A stretch of 43,580 nucleotides of DNA from the NCBI GenBank assembly GCA_031266815.1, contig JAISAG010000057.1:1-43580 (forward strand), written 5' to 3'. The translations under genes were made by a program, and so were the position numbers. Below, one piece after another: positions 32,901-43,580 of the stretch. The notes under the pieces were generated by a model. That model had not been told where the DNA came from and did not search any database. It saw only the letters and a list, made by a program, of their open reading frames with translations. This DNA is from Burkholderiaceae bacterium. Lineage in GTDB: Bacteria > Pseudomonadota > Gammaproteobacteria > Burkholderiales > Burkholderiaceae_D. The first letter of the stretch is position 1. Each line of letters opens with the position of its first letter.

Positions 32901-33792
32901 GCCGACAGACGAAATCCGTTCTGCGGCGCCGAAACAGTGGACGAACTGGAATTTTGGCGACTGGCAGGAGCAGGTGCCGCTTTTAGCTTCTCCGCAATCT
33001 CCCCGGGGATATCCGGCGCTGGTGGATAAGGAAACCGCCTGCGAAATCGTCGTTTTCGATGATTCCCGCCTGGCGGCGGAAACGCATTACGGCGGGTTGA
33101 GGCGGCTTTTTTCCCTGCAACTGAAAGAACAGATGAAGTATCTGTCCAGGAACATCGCACACTGCCGGGAGATGGAGATGATGGCATTGTCGCTCGGCAT
33201 ACAGATTGATATACGGGAGCAGCTTCTGTTGGCTGGCTTAAATGCCGCGTTCATGCGGGATCCGCTGCCCGCGGACGCCCGTTCGTTCAAGGAACGCCTG
33301 GAAGAAGGCAAATCCCGGTTGGGGCTCCTGCTGAACAATATTGCCGGATTGGCGTGGCAGATTTGGTCGGAATATGGGCAGGCACACCGGAAGATACAGG
33401 GAATCAAGGCCAATCCCCCTGCGGTGAGTGATATGCGGGAGCAGATGGGTGCTTTGTTGCATGCGCGCTTTTTGACGGAGAACGATCTGGAGCGATTGTC
33501 CCATTTTCCCCGCTATATTCGCGCATGCGCCATGCGGGCAGATCGCGTGCAAAATGCGCCGGAACGCGATGCCAAACTGATGGCGGCGTGGCATGCGGTG
33601 GCGGAACCTTATTGGCGGATGCGGAAAGCCCATCGGCAGTCCGGTCTGGCGGACAGCGCGGATATGTGCGCCTTTCGCTGGTTGCTGGAAGAGTTGCGGG
33701 TTTCTCTGTTCGCCCAGGAACTGCGTACGCCCATGCCCGTTTCGGTCAAGCGGCTTGGAAAGATATGGGAAGCCCTGCGCGGGCAGGGCTGA
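29926..33792 (+). CDS. hrpA: ATP-dependent RNA helicase HrpA
   Basis: Walker A 'VGGETGSGKTTQLPKICLDIGRG', DEAH 'LIIDEAHERSLNIDFLLGYI', 'NQRAGRCGRVASGICIRLY', long C-terminus; start uncertain. Confidence 0.94.
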   Translation: MTVTVKPALSPSASSHEGEALPFRHPLPPIHYPDALPVSAQREDIARALRENPVIIVGGETGSGKTTQLPKICLDIGRGVRGLIGHTQPRRIAASATARRIASELGSPLGHHVGFKVRFTDRLGHGASVKLMTDGILLAETQGDPLLRQYDTLIIDEAHERSLNIDFLLGYIRQILPRRPDLKVVITSATMDASHFARYFGSDTNPAPVIDVSGRLYPVEIRYRPLVPAEATAQKPQGGDKGEQDGVSAILSAADEAMRAGQGDILVFLPGEREIRMAADRLRAHYPPHVLVLPLYARLSAQEQERVFERTNARRIILATNVAETSLTVPGVRFVIDTGLARVKRYSYRNKVEQLHIEPISQAAANQRAGRCGRVASGICIRLYDESDFLSRAPYTTPEIMRSSLAGVILRMQSLQLGDVEAFPFPDMPSSRAIADGYQLLQELGALSASRQITPLGRQLARLPLDPRIGRMILAGHEQGSLAELLVIASALSIQDPRDRPADKQEAADRAHQLFSDSRSAFLSFLKMWQWVDEAYKNRKSQRQWQEQCRARFLSPLRLREWQDIHSQLLALAHEQGWRSNQTPATSEQVHLAILTGLLGNIGCRAPSAPHYLGARGIRFFPSPGSASGKKQGRWVVAAELVETKRLYARCMAQIQPEWVERVGAHLLKKSWSAPRWEKKTAQVVASEQATLHGLVIYGQRRVCYGDIDSQVSREIFIRSALVEGEWETRLPFFSHNRRLIDEIDAMEDRLRSTAIRVDDHVIAAFYDARLPNDVCDGSCFEKWYASAAAQDPHLLFMTREDLMRHTADGVGVDFFPKSLLLSGVEMPLHYHFAPGSPRDGATLSVPLYALNQLSAESCEWLVPGMLKEKVQGLLKSLPQKWRRHCLPLKDYAGAFCERIHSQGRFARGNLLDALIADVCEQTGMTPARTDFRVETLPAHLFMNFCVTDETGRMLEMARHLDVLRESLARSARDCFQKMAAGALPDAGFPLPPTDEIRSAAPKQWTNWNFGDWQEQVPLLASPQSPRGYPALVDKETACEIVVFDDSRLAAETHYGGLRRLFSLQLKEQMKYLSRNIAHCREMEMMALSLGIQIDIREQLLLAGLNAAFMRDPLPADARSFKERLEEGKSRLGLLLNNIAGLAWQIWSEYGQAHRKIQGIKANPPAVSDMREQMGALLHARFLTENDLERLSHFPRYIRACAMRADRVQNAPERDAKLMAAWHAVAEPYWRMRKAHRQSGLADSADMCAFRWLLEELRVSLFAQELRTPMPVSVKRLGKIWEALRGQG

Positions 33793-33820
33793 AAAACTGA
33801 CGGCGACCGGTCAAAAGCCG

Positions 33821-34798
33821 CTACGCGGACAGGCTGTGCGCGTCCGGCGCGGCGCGGTCCGCGTGGCTTCCCGGATTTAAGATGTGTTCCAGCATGCGCC
33901 GGTTCAGCGCGTTGGAGAGTTGTTCCGCAAATGCGCAGACATGGTTGCGAAGATAAGTGTTTTTCTTGAGCAGCATATGCGCCCTGTCCGTGCCAAACAA
34001 GTGTTTTGCCGGGATGCCGTGCAGGTTTTTGTCCCGTTCCGGGTCGTAGGCAAAGCTGACGATGATGCCTACACCCATTCCCAGTTCCACATACGCCTTG
34101 ATAGCGTCCGCCGTCATGGCGGAAAGCTGGATGTTCAGGGGCACGCCCGCTTTCCCGAATGTGCGTTGCAGATGCTCCTGTGCGGACGACAGGGAAGCGT
34201 AGGTGATGATGGGGTAGCGGGTCAATTCCTTCATGGTGAGGTGCTTGGAGCGCTTTAAGGGATGATTGTGTGGCACGACCACGTAAAACTCCCACTGGTC
34301 AAGCGGGATGACGGCAATTTCCTCCATTCCTTCAATGGTGCTGTCCGTCTCCATGACCAGCGCGATTTCGATGATGTCGCTCCGCAGGTATTCCACCAGT
34401 TCCCGCAGTGTGCCGTGTCGTATGGAAACCTCGACCTTGGGATGCTTGGGCAGAAACTGTGCCAGGGCTCTCGGGATGAAATAGCCGGCTTCCGCATAGG
34501 AAGTTCCCAGCATGAGCCGACTGTTTTCGGAAGCATTGAGTTCTTCCGCGATTTGTTTCAGGTTGTCAATTTCCCGCATGATGGTTTCAACCACCTGCGC
34601 TACCCTTTTCCCCGGTTCTGTCAGGCCGCGTATTCGCTTGCCGTAGCGGTGGAAAATTTCGACTCCCAGTTCATCCTCCAACTCGATAATCGCTTTTGAA
34701 ACACCGGGTTGTGAAGTGTACAGCGCTTTTGCCGCTTCGGTCAGGTTGAAGTTCTGACGAATGGTTTCCCGAACGAATCGGAGTTGCTGAAGGTTCAT
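33821..34798 (-). CDS. CysB/Cbl-type LysR family regulator
   Basis: 'MNLQQLRFVRETIRQNFNLTEAAKALYTSQPGVSKAIIELEDELGVEIFHRYGKRIRGLTEPG' CysB-type HTH. Confidence 0.9.
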   Translation of the reverse strand: MNLQQLRFVRETIRQNFNLTEAAKALYTSQPGVSKAIIELEDELGVEIFHRYGKRIRGLTEPGKRVAQVVETIMREIDNLKQIAEELNASENSRLMLGTSYAEAGYFIPRALAQFLPKHPKVEVSIRHGTLRELVEYLRSDIIEIALVMETDSTIEGMEEIAVIPLDQWEFYVVVPHNHPLKRSKHLTMKELTRYPIITYASLSSAQEHLQRTFGKAGVPLNIQLSAMTADAIKAYVELGMGVGIIVSFAYDPERDKNLHGIPAKHLFGTDRAHMLLKKNTYLRNHVCAFAEQLSNALNRRMLEHILNPGSHADRAAPDAHSLSA

Positions 34799-34912
34799 GT
34801 TTTGCTCCCCACCCGCACCGTGGCGTATATAACGAAAATGATAATGTTTTTTTATAATACTTCTTTTCTAATTATATAGCATGATGGCAATTCTGTTTCG
34901 GAATATGACCTA

Positions 34913-34941
34913 TTGACTTCGGAAGTGTTTTGCTTTACAAA
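34913..34941 (+). promoter_or_regulatory. Possible sigma70 promoter of the DUF362-tat-lar-cbi cluster
   Basis: TTGACT-N17-TACAAA about 80 nt upstream of the DUF362 start. Confidence 0.35.
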
Positions 34942-35023
34942 GGGGGCGTCAATCGAAGTGCTACGAACTGGCAGACGGCAGTTTGGCGCGCGGCGCCCTG
35001 TCAGTGATGAAACGGAGGGAGTC

Positions 35024-35950
35024 ATGGACAGACGGCAGTTTATCAAATCAGTGGTGGCAACAACCGCAGGAACGGCGCTTGCGCTCAAGGTAAACGGCGT
35101 GGCACAGGCGGCTGCCGGGAAATCCGGTAAGGGCAAGTCGGCGTATCCCGATGTGGTAGCGGTTCGCAACGGCGAGCCGGACAAGATGTTTCGCACGGGG
35201 ATTGCCGCGCTGGGCGGCATGGTCGCTTTCGTCAAGCCTGGTCAGAGAGTGGTCGTCAAACCCAACGCCGCTTTTGACGCGCCGCCGGAACGGGGCTCCA
35301 ACACCAACCCGATACTGGTGGGCGAGATTGTGCGGCAATGTCTTTCCGCCGGTGCGGCGGATGTCGCCGTATTCGACAATACGCTCAATGATTGGCGCAG
35401 CGCCTACGGAAACAGCGGCATCGGCGAGGCGGTCCAAAAAGCCGGGGGCAGGATGCTGCCTGCGGATAACGAAAGCCTGTACAAGCCGTTAACAGAAGCG
35501 CGGGCAGAGCGGTTGAAGGAAACGGCTGTTTTCGGCGCCCTGTTGTCTGCGGACGTGGTTATCAATGTCCCCGTACTGAAAAACCACGGCGGCGCGAAGA
35601 TGACAGGTGCCATCAAGAACCTGATGGGCGCGGTGTGGGAACGCCGCAGCATGCATCGCAATGACCTGAACCGTTCCATCGCCGAGATGCTGTACTACAT
35701 GAAGCCAACGCTCAATGTGGTAGACGCGTACCGGGTGATGGTGGACCATGGTCCCCGCGGCCTCAGCGTGGATGATGTGCGGCTGGTCCGGCACCTGCTC
35801 CTCTCGCGGGATATCGTCGCAGTGGATGCGGTGGCAACCCGCCTGTTGAAATACAACCAGAATGATGTCAAGTACATCGGGATTGCTTCCCAGTTGGGTT
35901 TCGGTAACGGCGACATCAAGACAATACAAATCAAACGGCTGAACGCGTAA
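35024..35950 (+). CDS. DUF362 domain protein with twin-arginine signal peptide
   Basis: 'MDRRQFIKSVVATTAGTALALKVNGVAQAA'; DUF362-type 'VVVKPNAAFDAPPERGSNTNPILVGEIVRQCLSAGAADVAVFDNT', 'INVPVLKNHGGAKMTGAIKNLMG'; RBS GGAGGG. Confidence 0.85.
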   Translation: MDRRQFIKSVVATTAGTALALKVNGVAQAAAGKSGKGKSAYPDVVAVRNGEPDKMFRTGIAALGGMVAFVKPGQRVVVKPNAAFDAPPERGSNTNPILVGEIVRQCLSAGAADVAVFDNTLNDWRSAYGNSGIGEAVQKAGGRMLPADNESLYKPLTEARAERLKETAVFGALLSADVVINVPVLKNHGGAKMTGAIKNLMGAVWERRSMHRNDLNRSIAEMLYYMKPTLNVVDAYRVMVDHGPRGLSVDDVRLVRHLLLSRDIVAVDAVATRLLKYNQNDVKYIGIASQLGFGNGDIKTIQIKRLNA

Positions 35951-35953
35951 ATC

Positions 35954-37513
35954 ATGGCTCCCCCTCGCGCCGCTCCTCTCGTGAAGCGGTTGCCCCGGTA
36001 CGGGCGGATTGGGTTGTCGGCGCTGTCTTTTGTGCTGAGTCTGGCGTCTTTCGCCTATTTTGGTGAAAGACTGTCCGGTTGGCTGTCGTTACAGGCGGGG
36101 CCCAACATCGCACACCTCTTCAGTGCGTTCGGGGTGTCTTCGCTCGCCATTCTGGTCGTTATCTTCCTCTTGACCTTTGTATTCGGGCGCTTTTACTGTG
36201 CAGTGCTTTGCCCGCTGGGGATTTTGCAATCCCTGATAGAATTTTTTGTCCCTGCCCGCATCCGCAGAACCCGCCGTCCGGGCAATTACCCGCGGGTGCG
36301 GTACCTCGTTGCGGTATTTGTTTTTGCCATGCTGGTGGGTGGTTCAGCGTTTGCCTTTTCCCTGCTGGATCCCTATTCCCACTTCGGCAGGATAACGACG
36401 GCGCTGTTCAATCCCCTGTTTATCCTGCTGTACAACCTGGCTGTCGGCGAGAACCTGTGGCAGCCAATTACGCAGATGGGGTGGATTCTTGTCGGCGCGC
36501 TCCTGCCTTTTCTGGTTCTGATCGGGCTGGTGTTGTGGAAGGGACGGGTTTTCTGCACGGCTATCTGTCCTGTCGGCGCCCTGCTGGGACTTGCCGCCAA
36601 AAAAGGATGGTTTGTCATGCAGATCAATCAGGGGCGCTGTATTGCTTGCGGCAATTGTGTCCGTTCCTGTTCTGCGGGCTGCATTGATCTGGTACCCGGA
36701 AATCCGCGCGCGCCCAAGCGCGTGGACAATGAACGCTGCCTGCGTTGCATGACCTGTATGGGAGTGTGTCCGCGAGACGCCGTCTTTTTTGGCAGGGCGC
36801 AGGCAATGGGTCGCTCTGGCGCCGCCATGCCTTCTCCGGCGTTGTCCCGCAGAGATTTTCTGCTGGGCGGCGCGGCGGGTGCGCTAACGCTGGGACTGGG
36901 GCGTTTTGCCTACGGACTTGGCGCAACGGAGAGCAAGGAAGCGCTTGCCGCTTCCCTGATTTGCCCGCCTTCGGCGGGTTCTCCCCAACGTTTTCTCTCA
37001 ACCTGTACCAACTGCGATCTCTGTGTTACTGTATGCAGGGGGCATGTGCTGGATCCGGCAACGCTCCGTCATCCCGTGGTGCATCTTCAGTTCGAGCGGG
37101 GTGTGTGCGAATACGAGTGCAAGCGGTGTACGGATGTTTGTCCAACGGGGGCGCTGGGGCGTATCAGCCTGCCGGAGAAGCAGCGTTTGCGGATCGCGAT
37201 GGCGGAGCTGACTCTGGCGATGTGTGTTACCGTCACAGACAAAACGGTTTGCGGCGCTTGCGCCGAGGTTTGTCCGACGGGGGCGCTGTACATGGAAGAA
37301 CACCCCGGTGATGTGAGCACACCGGCGCTGGATGCCGATGCCTGCATCGGTTGTGGCAGTTGCGAGTATGCCTGCCCCGTTCGCCCGGTCAGGGCGATTG
37401 TTGCCAAGCCGGTTGCTATTCAGGTACCGGCGGATGATCCCCGACCGAGGGATCGCACGGCGGGCGGTGGGGCGGATTCGCCATCATCCGGAAAAGAAGA
37501 CTGGCTTTTTTAG
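35954..37513 (+). CDS. Membrane polyferredoxin, NapH-like N-terminus fused to NapG-like ferredoxin domain with internal RR motif
   Basis: TM helices with '[10 protein letters not shown]' and 'FCTAICPVG'; '[11 protein letters not shown]', '[12 protein letters not shown]'; then '[28 protein letters not shown]'; then '[11 protein letters not shown]', '[13 protein letters not shown]', 'CGACAEVCP', '[12 protein letters not shown]'. Confidence 0.88.
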
Positions 37514-37524
37514 GAGGTCGCGTC

Positions 37525-37788
37525 ATGTCGCTGGGAATGACTGAAATTTTGTTGGTGCTCTTCGTGGTGCTGATTTTGTTCGGCGGGAAGAAAATTCCCG
37601 AGTTGGCAAAAGGACTTGGGCGTGCGCAACGAGAATACAAAAAGGCGCGGGACGAGATTGAGCGCGAATCCAAGGAACTGATGTCCTCGCTGGAAGAACA
37701 CGCCGAAGCTTCCAGCAAAAGCGAGGAGGCCGGGACGAAGAAGAGAAGACCCGCGAGAAGACCGGCAAGAAAGACGCCCGCGGCATAG
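37525..37788 (+). CDS. tatA: Twin-arginine translocase subunit TatA
   Basis: '[41 protein letters not shown]' TM, FGxxKxPEL and amphipathic helix. Confidence 0.92.
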
Positions 37789-37823
37789 TGTCGCGCGGGC
37801 ATTTCGGCCGGAGCGGGGAGGCG

Positions 37824-38699
37824 ATGGTGGCGAAGCCCGATGCGGACACTTTCATCGGACATCTGGAGGCCCTGCGCAGTACGCTGATTCGATGCGCCAT
37901 CGCGGTGGGCGTGCTGCTGGTTCCCGCTTATTTGCTCGCGCCGTATTGCATACAATGGCTTGTTTGGTGGACGTGTCCGCCGGAGGTGGGTCCTCTCAGG
38001 TATTTTTCGCCAATGGAGGTCTTTCTTGTCCAGCTCAAGCTGGCGCTTGTGATGGCCCTGTTGGTTTCTTTTCCTTATTGTATCTGGCAGATATGGCGAT
38101 TTTTGCTGCCCGCACTGTACGAATCGGAGCGCCAGGCACTGGTGTGGTGGGTGCTGGCCTCCAGCGTACTGTTTTTTCTGGGAGGCGCGTTTTGTGTCGC
38201 GTTCATCCTGCCGCTGGTTATGCGGTTTTCATCCGAATTCGCCAATCCCTATCTGACGCCCCTGATCGGGCTGTCGCCCTTTTTGGAATTGGCGGGGACC
38301 ATGATTGTCGTAACGGGGCTGGTGTTCCAGTTTCCCTTGGCGGTCTTGCTGGGCGTTCGCTTTGGGCTGGTCAGTACCGCGTTTCTCCGCGAAAAAAGGC
38401 GCTATGTCATTGTCGCCATCCTGATTATCGCCGGTATCGTGACGCCGCCCGATGTTTTCAGTCAGGTGATGGTCGCCATTCCGGCATGGATATTGTTTGA
38501 GGTAGGTTTATTGTTTGCCATTCGCTACGAAAAGCGGCTGGCGCTGCTTGATGAAGAAGAAGAATCCGCGGCGGCAGCGGATGTGCCGGCAGACGCGATG
38601 CCCGCGTCCGTTCCGGCGGGACAGGATGTGGGGTCAATGGATGACGGCATGCTCGAATTCTACGAGAGGGAAGCCCGCCGGACACACAGGGAGCCATGA
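37824..38699 (+). CDS. tatC: Twin-arginine translocase subunit TatC
   Basis: 'FIGHLEALRSTLIRCAIAVGV', 'FSPMEVFLVQLKLALVMALLVSFPYCIWQIWRFLLPALYESER', 'IVTPPDVFSQVMVAIPAWILFEVGLL'. Confidence 0.94.
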   Translation: MVAKPDADTFIGHLEALRSTLIRCAIAVGVLLVPAYLLAPYCIQWLVWWTCPPEVGPLRYFSPMEVFLVQLKLALVMALLVSFPYCIWQIWRFLLPALYESERQALVWWVLASSVLFFLGGAFCVAFILPLVMRFSSEFANPYLTPLIGLSPFLELAGTMIVVTGLVFQFPLAVLLGVRFGLVSTAFLREKRRYVIVAILIIAGIVTPPDVFSQVMVAIPAWILFEVGLLFAIRYEKRLALLDEEEESAAAADVPADAMPASVPAGQDVGSMDDGMLEFYEREARRTHREP

Positions 38700-39454
38700 T
38701 GGATTTGCGTTTATTGCTGCATCAGGTACAGACGGGGGAAGTGACGACAGCGGAAGCGGAAAGGCGGCTGCGCCTGCTCCCTTATGAGGATATTGGTTTT
38801 GCCCGTCTGGACCATCACCGCCCCTTGCGAAAGGGATTTGGCGAGGTGATTTACGCGCCCGGCAAGACAGAAGCGCAGTTGGTGGCAAGTTTTCGCCACT
38901 TCCAGGACGCGGGCAGCAATGTGCTGGCTTCCCGCGTCAGCCCGGCACAGGCGCAGGCGGTGCAGAGCCAGATTGCCCAAACCGTGTACGATCTGGTTTC
39001 CCGCACATTGTGCCTGTGTTTGCACGACATTCCCCAGACGGGAAATGTCGCGGTTTGTACGGGAGGGACTGCGGATATCCCTGTGGCGGAAGAAGCGGCG
39101 AAAGTGGCGGAATATTTTGGTTGCCGGGTGGCACGCTATTATGATGTGGGGATTGCGGGCATTCACCGTCTGTTTTCCAGTCTGGAAGATATCCGGCAGG
39201 CGAACGCGATTGCGGCGGTTGCGGGAATGGAGGGCGCGCTGGGGAGTGTGATTGCCGGTTTGGTCGAAGTGCCCGTGATCGCCATTCCGACCTCCGTGGG
39301 CTATGGCGCGTCCTTCGGCGGCGTTTCCGCGTTGCTGACGGCGTTAAATGCCTGTGCGGAAGGGTTGGCAGTGGTCAACATTGACAACGGGTTTGGCGGC
39401 GGCTATTTGCTGGCGCAGATTAATCGCCTTGTGGAGAAGCGACATGCAGGATGA
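38696..39454 (+). CDS. larB: Nickel-pincer cofactor biosynthesis protein LarB (PurE-like carboxylase domain)
   Basis: 'VQTGEVTTAEAERRL', 'GFARLDHHRPLRKGFGEVIYAPGKT', 'VAVCTGGTADIPVAEEAA', 'IAIPTSVGYGASFGGVSALLTALNACAEGLAVVNIDNGFGGGY'; ATGA overlap with tatC. Confidence 0.94.
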   Translation: MMDLRLLLHQVQTGEVTTAEAERRLRLLPYEDIGFARLDHHRPLRKGFGEVIYAPGKTEAQLVASFRHFQDAGSNVLASRVSPAQAQAVQSQIAQTVYDLVSRTLCLCLHDIPQTGNVAVCTGGTADIPVAEEAAKVAEYFGCRVARYYDVGIAGIHRLFSSLEDIRQANAIAAVAGMEGALGSVIAGLVEVPVIAIPTSVGYGASFGGVSALLTALNACAEGLAVVNIDNGFGGGYLLAQINRLVEKRHAG

Positions 39455-40685
39455 GCCGGTGTTATATCTGGAGTGCCGGTCCGGGGTCAGCGGCGATATG
39501 CTGGTTGCCGCCCTGCTGGATTTGGGAGTGGATCGCGCCTTTTTTTCCGCCGCGCTGGAGAGTCTGGGGCTGGAAGACGTTCACTTTTCCCTCTCCCATG
39601 TCAGCAAGCAGGGGATTCGCGCCTGTGATTTTGCCGTCGTGATACCGGATGCGCACACGCACGCCGACCCGCCGGGTCACGCACACCGGGAAACACACGA
39701 TCACCCGGCGCGCAATCTGTCCGACATTAACGCGCTGATTGAGAAATCTGCGTTGACCGACAACGCAAAGCGGTTGGCAAAAAAAATATTTGTCATTCTG
39801 GCGGAAACGGAAGCCAGGATACATAGCAAGGATGTGTACGATATCCACTTTCACGAAGTGGGCGCGGCGGACTCCATCATGGATGTAGCGGGGATTGCTG
39901 TTTGTGTGGACCATCTGGGCGTGGAACGCGTGGCGGTTTCTCCTTTGACGGACGGGTGCGGTCATGTCGTCTGCCAGCACGGTCGCTTGCCGGTTCCCGT
40001 ACCGGCAGTCGCTGACATGGCGGTGCGGTATGGACTGGCGCTGCATATCAGCGATTGTCCGCACGAACTCGTTACGCCGACAGGCATGGCGGCACTGGTT
40101 GCCTTAAAAACAGAATCGGCGCCGCCGACAGGCGCCATCCGCCAAATCGGCTATGGCGCCGGAAAGCGCGATCTGGCGCACCCGAACGTTTTGCGCGCCA
40201 TGATGTTGTCCGCTCCGCAAGTGTCTGCTCAGAGTGACACGGTCTGGGTACTGGAAGCCAATATGGATGACGCGACCGGAGAACAGTTGGGGCTTGCGAT
40301 GGAGTCGCTGTTTCGGGCAGGGGCGCTGGATGTGCATTACACGCCGGTTTTCATGAAAAAAAATCGTCCGGGCTGGCTCCTGCGCATTATCGCGCAGGAA
40401 GCGCTGGTACCCGCGCTGGAAGAAACCGCTTTCCTGGCGACAACGACCATTGGTATCCGGCGATACCGCTGCGAGCGGCGCATTTTGGTGCGGGATATTA
40501 TTTCCGTGTCATTGCCCTATGGTACGGCACGGGTCAAGCGGTGCCGTCTGGATGACCGCTTGTTCTATCACCCGGAATACGAGAGTGTCAAAGCGCTTTC
40601 AGAAAAAACGGGGATGGACTTTGTTGTGTTGATGGATGAAATCAGAAAAAGAGCAGAGGAGGGTAATTATCATGCACATGGCTGA
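39444..40685 (+). CDS. larC: Nickel-pincer cofactor biosynthesis nickel insertase LarC (single-chain)
   Basis: 'LYLECRSGVSGDMLVAALLDLG', His-rich 'DAHTHADPPGHAHRETHDH', 'DIHFHEVGAADSIMDVAG', 'VWVLEANMDDATGEQLGLAMESLFRAGALDVHYTPVFMKKNRPG'. Confidence 0.94.
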   Translation: MQDEPVLYLECRSGVSGDMLVAALLDLGVDRAFFSAALESLGLEDVHFSLSHVSKQGIRACDFAVVIPDAHTHADPPGHAHRETHDHPARNLSDINALIEKSALTDNAKRLAKKIFVILAETEARIHSKDVYDIHFHEVGAADSIMDVAGIAVCVDHLGVERVAVSPLTDGCGHVVCQHGRLPVPVPAVADMAVRYGLALHISDCPHELVTPTGMAALVALKTESAPPTGAIRQIGYGAGKRDLAHPNVLRAMMLSAPQVSAQSDTVWVLEANMDDATGEQLGLAMESLFRAGALDVHYTPVFMKKNRPGWLLRIIAQEALVPALEETAFLATTTIGIRRYRCERRILVRDIISVSLPYGTARVKRCRLDDRLFYHPEYESVKALSEKTGMDFVVLMDEIRKRAEEGNYHAHG

Positions 40686-41655
40686 TACACTGGTTTCCCC
40701 GGTAACCGGGACAGCGATGCTGGCGGTTTCATCCGGGTTGTTGGGATATTCACTGCGAAAGGTGCGCCAGCAGTTTCAGGAGCAGTGGGTTCCCCTGATG
40801 GGCGTGATGGGCGCTTTCGTTTTTGCAGCACAGATGATTAACTTCGTCATTCCTGCCACCGGTTCCAGCGGGCATGTGACCGGCATTATCCTGTTGGCGG
40901 CCCTGCTGGGACCCTACCCGGCTTTTCTGGTGCTGAGTACGGTACTGGTTTTGCAAGCACTGTTTTTTGCGGATGGCGGTTTGCTCGCCATGGGATGCAA
41001 CATATTCAACATGGCGTTCTGGGGGTGCTTTATCGCGTATCCCCTCCTTTTCAAGCCGTTGGTTAACGGGCAGTATTCCCGGGGGAGACTGGTTTTGGGG
41101 AGCGTCCTCGCCTGCATGGTTTCCGCCCAACTGGGCGCGCTGGGCGTGGTACTGGAAACCCTGGCGTCGGGGATAACGGAATTGCCTTTTTCTACCTTCG
41201 CGCTGCTCATGCTGCCCATTCATCTGGCAATCGGGGCGATTGAGGGCGTGTTGACCGCTTGCGTCCTGCTGATTCTCCATCGGGCAGAACCTCGCTTGCT
41301 GGCGGGCGGGGAGCAAAAAATCCCTTCCGCTGCCCTGCTCTCCTTTTTGGGGATTTCCGCCGTTTTCATGGGAGGATTCGTGTCGCTGATTGCCTCATCC
41401 GCACCGGATGGGCTGGAATGGGCTATCAAGAAGACCTCGGGCGCGACCGATATTCCCGCCACCCATGCCTGGCACGACATCAGCGCGGCCTGGCAGAGCA
41501 AAATTGCCGTTTTGCCGGATTACGCTCTGCCGGGCCTGGGAGAGACACTGGGGACCATGCTGTCCGGGGTGTCTGGCGCGTTGTTGACACTCTTTTTGGT
41601 GTTGTTGCTGGGTATGCTCGTCATCAGACGGAAGAAAAATGCGGACATTCCGTAA
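40672..41655 (+). CDS. cbiM: ECF-type nickel/cobalt transporter substrate-binding membrane protein CbiM/NikM, fused N-like C-terminus
   Basis: 'MHMADTLVSPVTGTAMLAVSSGLLGY' metal-binding N-terminus; 'FVIPATGSSGHVTGIILLAALLGPYPAFLVLSTVLVLQALFFADGGLLAMGCNIFNMAFWG'; C-terminal 'SSAPDGLEWAI'. Confidence 0.92.
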   Translation: MHMADTLVSPVTGTAMLAVSSGLLGYSLRKVRQQFQEQWVPLMGVMGAFVFAAQMINFVIPATGSSGHVTGIILLAALLGPYPAFLVLSTVLVLQALFFADGGLLAMGCNIFNMAFWGCFIAYPLLFKPLVNGQYSRGRLVLGSVLACMVSAQLGALGVVLETLASGITELPFSTFALLMLPIHLAIGAIEGVLTACVLLILHRAEPRLLAGGEQKIPSAALLSFLGISAVFMGGFVSLIASSAPDGLEWAIKKTSGATDIPATHAWHDISAAWQSKIAVLPDYALPGLGETLGTMLSGVSGALLTLFLVLLLGMLVIRRKKNADIP

Positions 41656-42445
41656 ACTGCACGGTTCACAGGCAGACCTGGGGGTGCTGGAATACTGTGC
41701 CGACAGGGACGGCTTTCTTCAGCGGTGTCCGGCTACCCTCAAGCTGGCGTTTACGCTGTGCTTTATTCTCATGGTCGTTTCCGTTTCGCGGTACGACTGG
41801 CAGACCCTGCTGCCTTTTTTTGCCTATCCGCTGATAGCGCTCCCCCTTGTTGGCATGCCCTGGCGTTTTTTTTTGCAGAGGCTGGTTCTCGTTTTTCCCT
41901 TCATCTTTTTTCTGGGGCTTGCCAATGTGTTGAGCGACCAGACGGTCATTCATTATGGGGCGACCGTCAGTTTGCCCGGCGGGGTTGTTTCCTTTGCCGT
42001 ACTGATTCTGAAAACATTGCTGACGGTGGGTTCTGCCCTGATTTTCATCGCCTGTACACCCATTTATCGTGTGGCGGGTGCCCTGGCGACCTTTCGTGTT
42101 CCCTGCCTTTTCGTCATGCAATTTTTGTTGACATGGCGTTATCTGGGAGTGCTGACACGGGAAGCGGGCAACATGGCGGCGGCTTACCACTTGCGGTGCG
42201 GCGGCTCAACACGCGGTATCCGGCTTCGTCACTGGGCGCCGCTGACGGCACAGTTTTTGATTCGCTGCATGGACCGCGCGCACAAGGTGCATCAGGCGAT
42301 GGTATCCCGCCTGTTTGACGCACGGCATATACGCTACGATGCACCGCCCGCACGATTTGCCGACTGGCTGTTGTGGCTGTTTTTGTGTCTGTTGTGCGTT
42401 TTTTTTCGTTTGCTTCACTGGTTTTGCCAGGTATTGTTGTCATGA
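41639..42445 (+). CDS. cbiQ: ECF transporter transmembrane protein CbiQ
   Basis: Overlaps cbiM; 'AMVSRLFDARHI' and 'AAAYHLRCGGSTRGIRLRHWAPLTAQFLIRCMDRAHKVHQAM' coupling region. Confidence 0.88.
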   Translation: MRTFRKLHGSQADLGVLEYCADRDGFLQRCPATLKLAFTLCFILMVVSVSRYDWQTLLPFFAYPLIALPLVGMPWRFFLQRLVLVFPFIFFLGLANVLSDQTVIHYGATVSLPGGVVSFAVLILKTLLTVGSALIFIACTPIYRVAGALATFRVPCLFVMQFLLTWRYLGVLTREAGNMAAAYHLRCGGSTRGIRLRHWAPLTAQFLIRCMDRAHKVHQAMVSRLFDARHIRYDAPPARFADWLLWLFLCLLCVFFRLLHWFCQVLLS

Positions 42446-43140
42446 TTCGCCTGCGGGAAGTGAGTTTGCGCTATCCCGACGGTCACCTGCCCATCCGGGA
42501 CCTGAGTCACCACATCCCCGCCGGGCGGCGCACGGCATTGCTGGGCGCCAATGGTGCGGGCAAGACATCCCTTCTGCTGGCGCTGGTGGGGCTGCTCCCC
42601 TTGCACGAGGGCAGCGCCCGCATTGCGGATATTCCTCTTGAACCCGCGCGGTATCGGGACATTCGCCAAAAAATCGGGCTGGTTTTTCAGAATCCGGACG
42701 ACCAGTTTTTTTCCACAAGCGTAGAGAACGATGTTGTCTTTGGTTTGCACAATCTGGGCTTGTCCGCGGCGGAAATTCAGGCGCGTACGACGCGTATTTT
42801 GCACGTCATGCAGATAGTGCATCTGCGCGAACGCTCTCCCGGCAGGCTCTCCGGCGGTGAAAAACGGAAAGTGGCGCTGGCGGGGGTGCTGGTAATGGAG
42901 CCGGAAATCATTTTGCTGGACGAGCCGACAGCGTATCTTGACCCCCGTTCCCGGCGCGAACTGTGTGACGTATTGCGTGCGTTGCCGCAGACCGTGGTGG
43001 TGGCGACACATGATGTAGCCTTTGCAGAGGCACTCTGTTCGCATGCGATGCTCCTGCGTGATGGATGTCTGGTGCAGGCGGGCGAGATGAAGCAGATTTT
43101 GGAGGAGGAGGAGCAATTACTACAGTGCGGGTTGTGCTGA
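42442..43140 (+). CDS. cbiO: ECF transporter ATPase CbiO
   Basis: Walker A 'LLGANGAGKTSLLLALVGLLP', Q-loop 'GLVFQNPDDQFFSTSVENDVVFGLHNLGL', 'LSGGEKRKVALAGVLVMEPEIILLDEPTAYLDPRSRREL'. Confidence 0.96.
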   Translation: MIRLREVSLRYPDGHLPIRDLSHHIPAGRRTALLGANGAGKTSLLLALVGLLPLHEGSARIADIPLEPARYRDIRQKIGLVFQNPDDQFFSTSVENDVVFGLHNLGLSAAEIQARTTRILHVMQIVHLRERSPGRLSGGEKRKVALAGVLVMEPEIILLDEPTAYLDPRSRRELCDVLRALPQTVVVATHDVAFAEALCSHAMLLRDGCLVQAGEMKQILEEEEQLLQCGLC

Positions 43141-43263
43141 AAACGCGGAATGCGGGTGCATGGCGGTGTTACTTCGTCGTTCGCGCGTTCGCCTACCAGC
43201 GGAGGGTTGTCTCACGCGCTCACTTCCTTGCGCCTTGCCCTGCCTCCCGCATTCCGCGTTTTC
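43139..43263. repeat. Inverted-repeat-bounded element: GAAAACGCGGAATGCGGG ... CCCGCATTCCGCGTTTTC
   Basis: Perfect 18-bp inverted repeats at 43139-43156 and 43246-43263; left arm overlaps the cbiO stop codon. Confidence 0.8.
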
Positions 43264-43371
43264 CTGTAAGGGCATCGGGCGAATCGCGGCGTCTCGCTCA
43301 CTTTCTCGCCTAGCAGCGAGGTATGTCTCGGTCGTTCGCTGCGACGACGCCTTGCGCTTCATCCCGCATTC
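43190..43371. repeat. Degenerate tandem duplication, period 117 bp
   Basis: CGCCTACCAGCGGAGGGTTGTCTC...GCCTTGCCCTGCCTCCCGCATTC (43190-43254) matches CGCCTAGCAGCGAGGTATGTCTC...GCCTTGCGCTTCATCCCGCATTC (43307-43371). Confidence 0.75.
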
Positions 43372-43580
43372 ACCATCTCACAGGGGCAGCTTCCAGTGTT
43401 TTTTCGACACCAAATGTCGTTTTTTGGCAACGTTTAGCGCTCATCCGCAAACTAAAGTCAACATCTCACGCTAAAATCGGTCTTATGGATTGAAAATGTC
43501 CCCCTCTGAACATGCCAGCCCCCCTTGGGGTACCTTTCGAACGCACTGACCTTACAATTCCGGGAAAAATCATGGAAAAC

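What the first reader, a model, noticed from the sequence alone, without database searches (positions are those of the whole stretch)
35024..35950. The Tat-dependent DUF362 protein may be the nickel-pincer client enzyme
Seen: MDRRQFIKS...AQA Tat signal; essentially no cysteines (one in RQCLSAG), so it is unlikely to bind its own Fe-S cluster, unlike DUF362-ferredoxin fusions; motif LKNHGGAKMTGAIKNLMG contains Lys/His that could hold a cofactor. It is the first gene of a cluster with cofactor synthesis and metal uptake but no recognisable LarA. Inference: it could be a functional analogue or distant fold relative of LarA.
Basis: inference. Interest (0 to 1): 0.75.

Follow-up and report, generated by a model that had tools for sequence, protein, structure and literature searches.

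The report
Exported LarA-fold protein with nickel-cofactor genes
A protein of unknown function that is probably shipped out of the cell has the fold of the nickel enzyme lactate racemase and sits in one gene cluster with the machinery that makes that enzyme's nickel cofactor, so it is probably a second kind of enzyme using it, although many gut Bacteroides carry a relative without the cofactor-making genes.

Summary
Window 35024-35950 encodes a 308-aa DUF362 protein with an MDRRQFIK...AQA Tat-type leader and one Cys. It starts a same-strand cluster: DUF362, NapH/NapG-like Fe-S membrane protein, TatA, TatC, LarB, LarC and a Ni/Co ECF transporter. LarE is elsewhere in the genome; no LarA was found.

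The AlphaFold2 model (pLDDT 89) matches only LarA-family structures below E 0.001 (19 of 19). An unbiased profile scan puts its invariant His188 and Lys198 on LarA His174 and Lys184, the NPN (nickel-pincer nucleotide) lysine.

New evidence: LarC, LarB or LarE genes lie within 10 kb of this DUF362-NapGH pair in 14 of 100 loci from several phyla, in different arrangements. In 249 same-phylum genomes, 39 of 43 with the protein have LarC and none has LarA.

Against a strict link: many Bacteroidales, including Bacteroides isolates, have the pair and its invariant residues but no LarB/LarC.

Verdict: most likely an exported NPN-dependent enzyme of the LarA fold, probably wired to the quinone pool by its Fe-S partner. 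Cofactor binding, substrate and redox role are inferred, not shown.

The parts
35024..35950 (+). DUF362 protein with Tat-type leader (308 aa); LarA-like fold; H188, K198, H211 invariant in close relatives
35954..37513 (+). NapH/NapG-like membrane polyferredoxin fusion: CxxxCP membrane-side motifs, four CxxCxxCxxxC motifs, internal RRDF Tat-like motif
   Evidence: (NapH/NapG models hit but below cut-off); next to DUF362 in 76 of 80 named-genome loci
37525..37788 (+). TatA (87 aa)
   Evidence: TIGR01411, 59.6 bits, cut-off 53.9
37824..38699 (+). TatC
   Evidence: TIGR00945 over cut-off
38696..39454 (+). LarB, carboxylase/hydrolase of NPN synthesis
   Evidence: NF033503, 267.9 bits, cut-off 175
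39444..40685 (+). LarC, nickel insertion (LarC1 + LarC2)
   Evidence: (PF01969, E 1e-128)
40672..41655 (+). CbiM/NikM-type ECF substrate component fused to PDGLE (NikN-like), starts MHMAD
41639..42445 (+). CbiQ/NikQ ECF T component
   Evidence: TIGR02454 over cut-off
42442..43140 (+). CbiO/NikO ECF ATPase
   Evidence: best NCBIfam models below their own cut-offs; Pfam ABC_tran over cut-off
33821..34798 (-). CysB-type LysR regulator, divergent from the cluster; involvement not shown

Best explanation
The protein is an exported enzyme with the LarA catalytic-domain fold that carries the nickel-pincer nucleotide. The ECF transporter brings in nickel; LarB, LarE and LarC make NPN in the cytoplasm; NPN is fixed on Lys198, with His211 as the probable nickel ligand; the folded holo-protein leaves through Tat (a TatA/TatC pair is in the cluster). 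Outside, NPN takes a hydride from, or gives one to, a substrate with His188 as acid/base, and the NapH/NapG-like partner passes electrons between the membrane quinone pool and this site. Shown: gene content, leader motif, fold match of a predicted model, sequence correspondence of His188/Lys198 with LarA His174/Lys184, repeated linkage to LarB/C/E. Inferred: NPN loading, His211 as ligand, export, substrate, redox coupling.
For: Fold: all 19 Foldseek hits under E 0.001 are LarA-family structures, from a model with pLDDT 89. Residues: an ungapped profile-profile scan over about 90,000 windows ranks first, at widths 30-45, the diagonal that pairs H188 with LarA H174 and K198 with K184; best score at width 35 is 27.1 against 22.3 for the next diagonal. 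H188, K198 and H211 are invariant in 42 sequences. Genome: LarB, LarC and a Ni/Co transporter in the cluster, LarE present, LarA absent. Linkage: LarC in 14, LarB and LarE each in 11 of 100 DUF362-NapGH loci, in Bacteroidota, Verrucomicrobiota/Opitutales and a distant lineage of the window's phylum, including DUF362-NapGH-LarC-LarB-LarE in one row (L045); the linkage state changes at least 9 times on the tree. Co-occurrence: in the same phylum 39 of 43 genomes with the protein have LarC and 0 of 43 have LarA, while LarC is in 9 of 206 others; in Bacteroidota 11 of 34 against 10 of 312 (p 3e-7, uncorrected for kinship).
Against: 24 of 50 genomes with a 43-59% identical relative lack LarC and the same 24 lack LarB over cut-off, including isolates such as Bacteroides congonensis and Parabacteroides sp. 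PF5-9. No residue separates LarC+ from LarC- members, so the same active site exists where NPN cannot be made from known genes. Two of the three nearest rows on the tree (L056, L058) also lack LarC, though these bins are only 0.9-1.0 Mb. hhalign gives no significant match to LarA. No LarA Arg75 counterpart was identified. The same-phylum table is dominated by one lineage, so its tests overstate independence.
Confidence: 0.55

Rival explanations
1. The DUF362-NapGH pair is an exported redox enzyme of the LarA fold that uses another ligand (an ordinary nicotinamide or other nucleotide, or a metal alone), and is only metabolically associated with NPN-making genes in some lineages.
For: Bacteroidales keep the pair and all invariant residues without LarB/LarC. 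NapGH adjacency (76 of 80) is far tighter than LarB/C linkage.
Against: LarC, LarB and LarE are among the commonest linked genes after the partner, across phyla; the window's cluster has no other recognised NPN client and no LarA was found in the genome.
Confidence: 0.25
2. The protein is an NPN enzyme everywhere, and organisms without LarBCE import the cofactor or a precursor.
For: One of two small membrane protein families (one weakly like ECF S components, 13.9 bits, below cut-off) lies close to DUF362 in 17 of 100 loci; in the 9 of these whose genome was tested, LarC is absent in all 9 (p 5e-4, uncorrected for kinship). Some LarC- genomes still carry strong LarA matches (G325 198 bits, G310 148, G351 140).
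Against: Substrates of these membrane proteins are unknown; the LarA+ LarC- cases are MAGs and may be incomplete; the nine loci are related.
Confidence: 0.12
3. The NPN made here serves a LarA missing from the assembly or another unknown enzyme; DUF362 is a bystander in the cluster.
For: The assembly is 88% complete, so a LarA could be missing.
Against: 0 of 43 same-phylum genomes with the protein have LarA although 39 have LarC, and 25 of the 43 are at least 90% complete with low contamination; linkage recurs in distant phyla.
Confidence: 0.08

Closest known systems
LarA lactate racemase / DUF2088 superfamily (PF09861; PDB 5huq, 6c1w, 2yjg)
   Same: Fold, Pfam clan CL0471 (PMC11770544), His174/Lys184 counterparts, LarB/LarC/LarE in the genome.
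   Different: No PF09861 match, core of about 268 residues instead of about 420, Tat-type leader, Fe-S membrane partner, no shown racemase activity.
DUF362 family (PF04015)
   Same: Full-length family match, 160 bits over a cut-off of 24.
   Different: Function of the family is unknown; this subgroup is the Tat-leader, NapGH-paired type.
LarA homologs with a single catalytic histidine (PMC12611868; PDB 9q3j, 9q3k)
   Same: They include the best Foldseek hit. P0001 has Asn119 where most relatives have His, at the place that by order and spacing would match LarA His108.
   Different: The His108 correspondence is inferred from spacing only, and the His replaced may not be the same one.
NapG/NapH quinol dehydrogenase modules of periplasmic reductases
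   Same: Partner has NapH-like membrane CxxxCP motifs, a NapG/NapF-like ferredoxin part and an internal RR motif.
   Different: Fused into one protein and below the NapH and NapG cut-offs.

Membership tests
DUF362 (PF04015) | Match to the Pfam model over its gathering score | tested here: met
   160.4 bits against 24, profile 1-199 of 200
LarA / DUF2088 superfamily (PF09861) | Match to the Pfam model | tested here: not met
   No PF09861 hit for the protein or anywhere in the genome
LarA / DUF2088 superfamily (PF09861) | LarA fold | tested here: met
   All 19 PDB hits with E under 0.001 are LarA-family; based on a predicted model, TM-scores 0.37-0.54 by query length
LarA / DUF2088 superfamily (PF09861) | NPN-anchoring Lys184 and catalytic His174 | tested here: met
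   Top-ranked profile diagonal pairs K198 and H188 with them; invariant in 42 sequences. No coordinates could be superposed.
LarA / DUF2088 superfamily (PF09861) | Nickel ligand His200, NPN-binding Arg75, catalytic His108 | tested here: inconclusive
   H211 lies 13 residues after K198 (16 in LarA); position 119 is N here and H in most relatives; no Arg75 counterpart assigned
LarA / DUF2088 superfamily (PF09861) | Two-domain protein of about 420 residues | tested here: not met
   308 aa with leader; LarA-family chains are 393-505
NPN-dependent enzymes | LarB, LarC and LarE in the genome | tested here: met
   LarB, LarC, LarE
NPN-dependent enzymes | Family always co-occurs with NPN synthesis | tested here: not met
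   24 of 50 genomes with relatives lack LarC; LarA itself also appears without LarC in some of these MAGs
NPN-dependent enzymes | Bound nickel and Lys-tethered NPN; 2-hydroxy acid racemase/epimerase activity | not testable with these tools
   Needs protein
NapH/NapG (partner protein) | NapH (TIGR02163) and NapG models over cut-off | tested here: not met
   69.4 of 213 bits and 54.1 of 269 bits; called NapGH-like only

The most novel reading that the evidence does not exclude
The Tat-leader DUF362 proteins are a second family of nickel-pincer nucleotide enzymes: exported, paired with a quinone-linked Fe-S protein, and doing net redox chemistry with a cofactor known so far only from redox-neutral racemases and epimerases. 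Other DUF362 branches may use it too (a roughly 370-aa DUF362 type co-occurs with LarC in 13 of 16 Bacteroidota genomes).
Probability: 0.3. Interest if true: 0.9.

Novelty: new variant of a known kind. Interest (0 to 1): 0.72.

Why it matters
NPN synthesis genes occur in genomes without any LarA, so clients are missing; in the named controls LarC is found in 6 of 14 genomes but LarA in only 2. This finding offers a specific candidate. DUF362 is a widespread family without known function; a shared fold, conserved anchor residues and repeated linkage to LarB/C/E turn it into a directly testable nickel-enzyme hypothesis. If the partner really links it to quinones, it would be an NPN enzyme with net electron transfer and outside the cytoplasm, for which the papers searched show no precedent.

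Tried and rejected
hhalign of DUF362 against LarA alignments gave nothing with shallow profiles and the right register but no significance with a more diverse one (P 0.12), so homology rests on fold, clan and the diagonal scan. phmmer against PDB found no relative. Rfam found no riboswitch or other RNA in 33500-43580. Composition shows no GC break at the cluster, so recent transfer is not supported by composition, although 59 sampled relatives, 12 of them congeners, lack a match. No residues convincingly separate LarC+ from LarC- members. The weak Bacteroidota hits were first taken for ferredoxin-fused DUF362; the three sequences read are a separate roughly 370-aa type. The plasmid search gave only three hits.

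Full report
WHAT IS THERE. The ORF at 35024-35950 (+) encodes 308 aa beginning MDRRQFIKSVVATTAGTALALKVNGVAQAAAG, a Tat-type leader by motif, and it is a DUF362 protein (PF04015, 160 bits). The next genes on the same strand, nearly end to end, are a 519-aa NapH/NapG-like membrane Fe-S protein, TatA, TatC, LarB, LarC, a CbiM/NikM-PDGLE fusion, CbiQ and CbiO. A CysB-type LysR gene is divergent. LarE is on another contig. PF09861 (LarA) is absent from the 1.87-Mb, 88% complete assembly. So everything for NPN is present without the known client. This is the only DUF362 in the assembly.

FOLD. According to PMC11770544, Pfam places DUF362 and DUF2088/LarA in one clan, CL0471, and DUF362 served there as outgroup of the LarA tree. 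That much is already known. An AlphaFold2 model from 42 sequences has pLDDT 89 and pTM 0.85. Foldseek against the PDB gives 19 matches with E under 0.001 and every one is a LarA-family entry; the next is at 0.01. TM-scores are moderate (0.37-0.54 by query length), as expected for a smaller, divergent relative.

RESIDUES. Coordinates of the model were not available, so correspondence was tested by sequence. Scoring all ungapped windows of a 56-sequence DUF362 profile against a 10-sequence LarA profile, the best diagonal at widths 30, 35, 40 and 45 is the one that lays P0001 VVINVPVLKNHGGAKMTGAIKNLM on LarA (L137) LLIAEGFIEPHFFAGFSGGRKAVF, with H188 on His174 and K198 on Lys184 (LarA numbering through). 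hhalign picked the same register, but without significance. Lys184 is important for NPN binding and His174 is catalytic in LarA (PMC11770544, PMC12611868). His211, 13 residues on, is the candidate for the nickel ligand His200 (16 residues on in LarA); this step is inference. By order and spacing of strands, position 119 (Asn here, His in 28 of 39 sequences) would match His108; also inference.

PARTNER. NapGH follows DUF362 in 76 of 80 named-genome loci and in 18 of 20 more distant same-phylum loci. It has CxxxCP motifs, four CxxCxxCxxxC motifs and an internal RRDF. NapH/NapG models hit but stay below cut-off, so it is called NapGH-like. TatC sits near the pair in L057, L058, L060, L093, L103, L107, L110 and the window.

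LINK TO NPN GENES. Clustering all genes within 10 kb of DUF362 in 100 loci, the most frequent families after the pair are a DUF6599 protein (16 loci), LarC (14), a Tat-leader aldo/keto reductase (13), LarB (11) and LarE (11). Arrangements differ: same-strand downstream (window; L045, L047, L050; L092, L105), divergent (L100 and similar Bacteroidota loci; L048), and downstream in inverted orientation (L115). On the DUF362 tree the linked state changes at least 9 times, so it is not one inherited block.

CO-OCCURRENCE. In 249 same-phylum genomes the protein is in 43, LarC in 48, LarA in 4. 39 of the 43 have LarC (the four without are 69-76% complete), none has LarA, and all four LarA genomes lack the protein. 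Most of the 43 seem to belong to one deep lineage, so this table counts few independent events. In 346 Bacteroidota genomes, 11 of 34 with the close type have LarC against 10 of 312 without. A second, roughly 370-aa DUF362 type, seen as weak hits, is in 16 genomes, 13 of them LarC+.

THE PROBLEM. Of 50 named genomes with relatives 43-59% identical, 24 lack LarC, and the same 24 lack LarB over cut-off. They include isolates (Bacteroides congonensis, Bacteroides sp. GM023, Parabacteroides sp. PF5-9). No position separates the two groups. Either the enzyme does not need NPN, or these bacteria obtain it otherwise. In 9 of 9 tested loci with one of two small membrane proteins close to DUF362, the genome is LarC-; one type resembles ECF S components weakly. 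Import is a lead, not a result.

MECHANISM, MARKED. Shown: gene order, leader motif, fold match of the model, sequence correspondence of His188/Lys198, recurrent linkage, absence of LarA. Inferred: cytoplasmic NPN loading before Tat export (which would explain a Tat pair in the cluster), nickel rather than cobalt as the imported metal, hydride chemistry on an unknown substrate, electron exchange with quinones through NapGH. A simple racemase is possible, but a racemase needs no electron partner.

VERDICT. Classed as a new variant of a known kind: a candidate exported NPN enzyme in a family already listed as LarA's clan relative.

Noticed in passing
L148:1715-2830, L149:1781-2881, L150:2327-3454: A roughly 370-aa DUF362 type without a Tat leader (motif TVKxHIYTTTTGAMKN) co-occurs with LarC in 13 of 16 Bacteroidota genomes against 8 of 330 others; a second candidate NPN client.
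   Followed up: partly
L101:9473-9982 and homologs in L066, L085, L089, L095, L104, L109, L123, L127, L130: Small membrane protein, weakly like ECF substrate components, upstream of DUF362 in Bacteroidales loci; every tested genome of this group lacks LarC.
   Followed up: partly
L070:9333-9866 and homologs in L076, L080, L083, L084, L090, L113: A second small membrane protein family, no Pfam match, divergent next to DUF362.
   Followed up: no
L036:8098-9054 and L038:11343-12560: DUF6599 protein (16 loci) and a Tat-leader aldo/keto reductase with Fe-S motifs (13 loci) beside DUF362-NapGH in the distant same-phylum lineage; possible substrate clue.
   Followed up: no
G325:C3, G310:C165, G351:C10: Strong LarA matches (140-198 bits) in MAGs without LarC or LarB over cut-off: incompleteness or cofactor salvage.
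   Followed up: no
window 35024-43140: None of 59 other sampled relatives, 12 of the same genus, has a match to this DUF362 protein, yet GC is even across the window; origin of the cluster in this genome is unclear.
   Followed up: partly
G098, G225 (same-phylum sample): Two genomes listed as 100% complete have LarC but neither LarA nor a P0001-like protein, so further NPN clients may exist.
   Followed up: no
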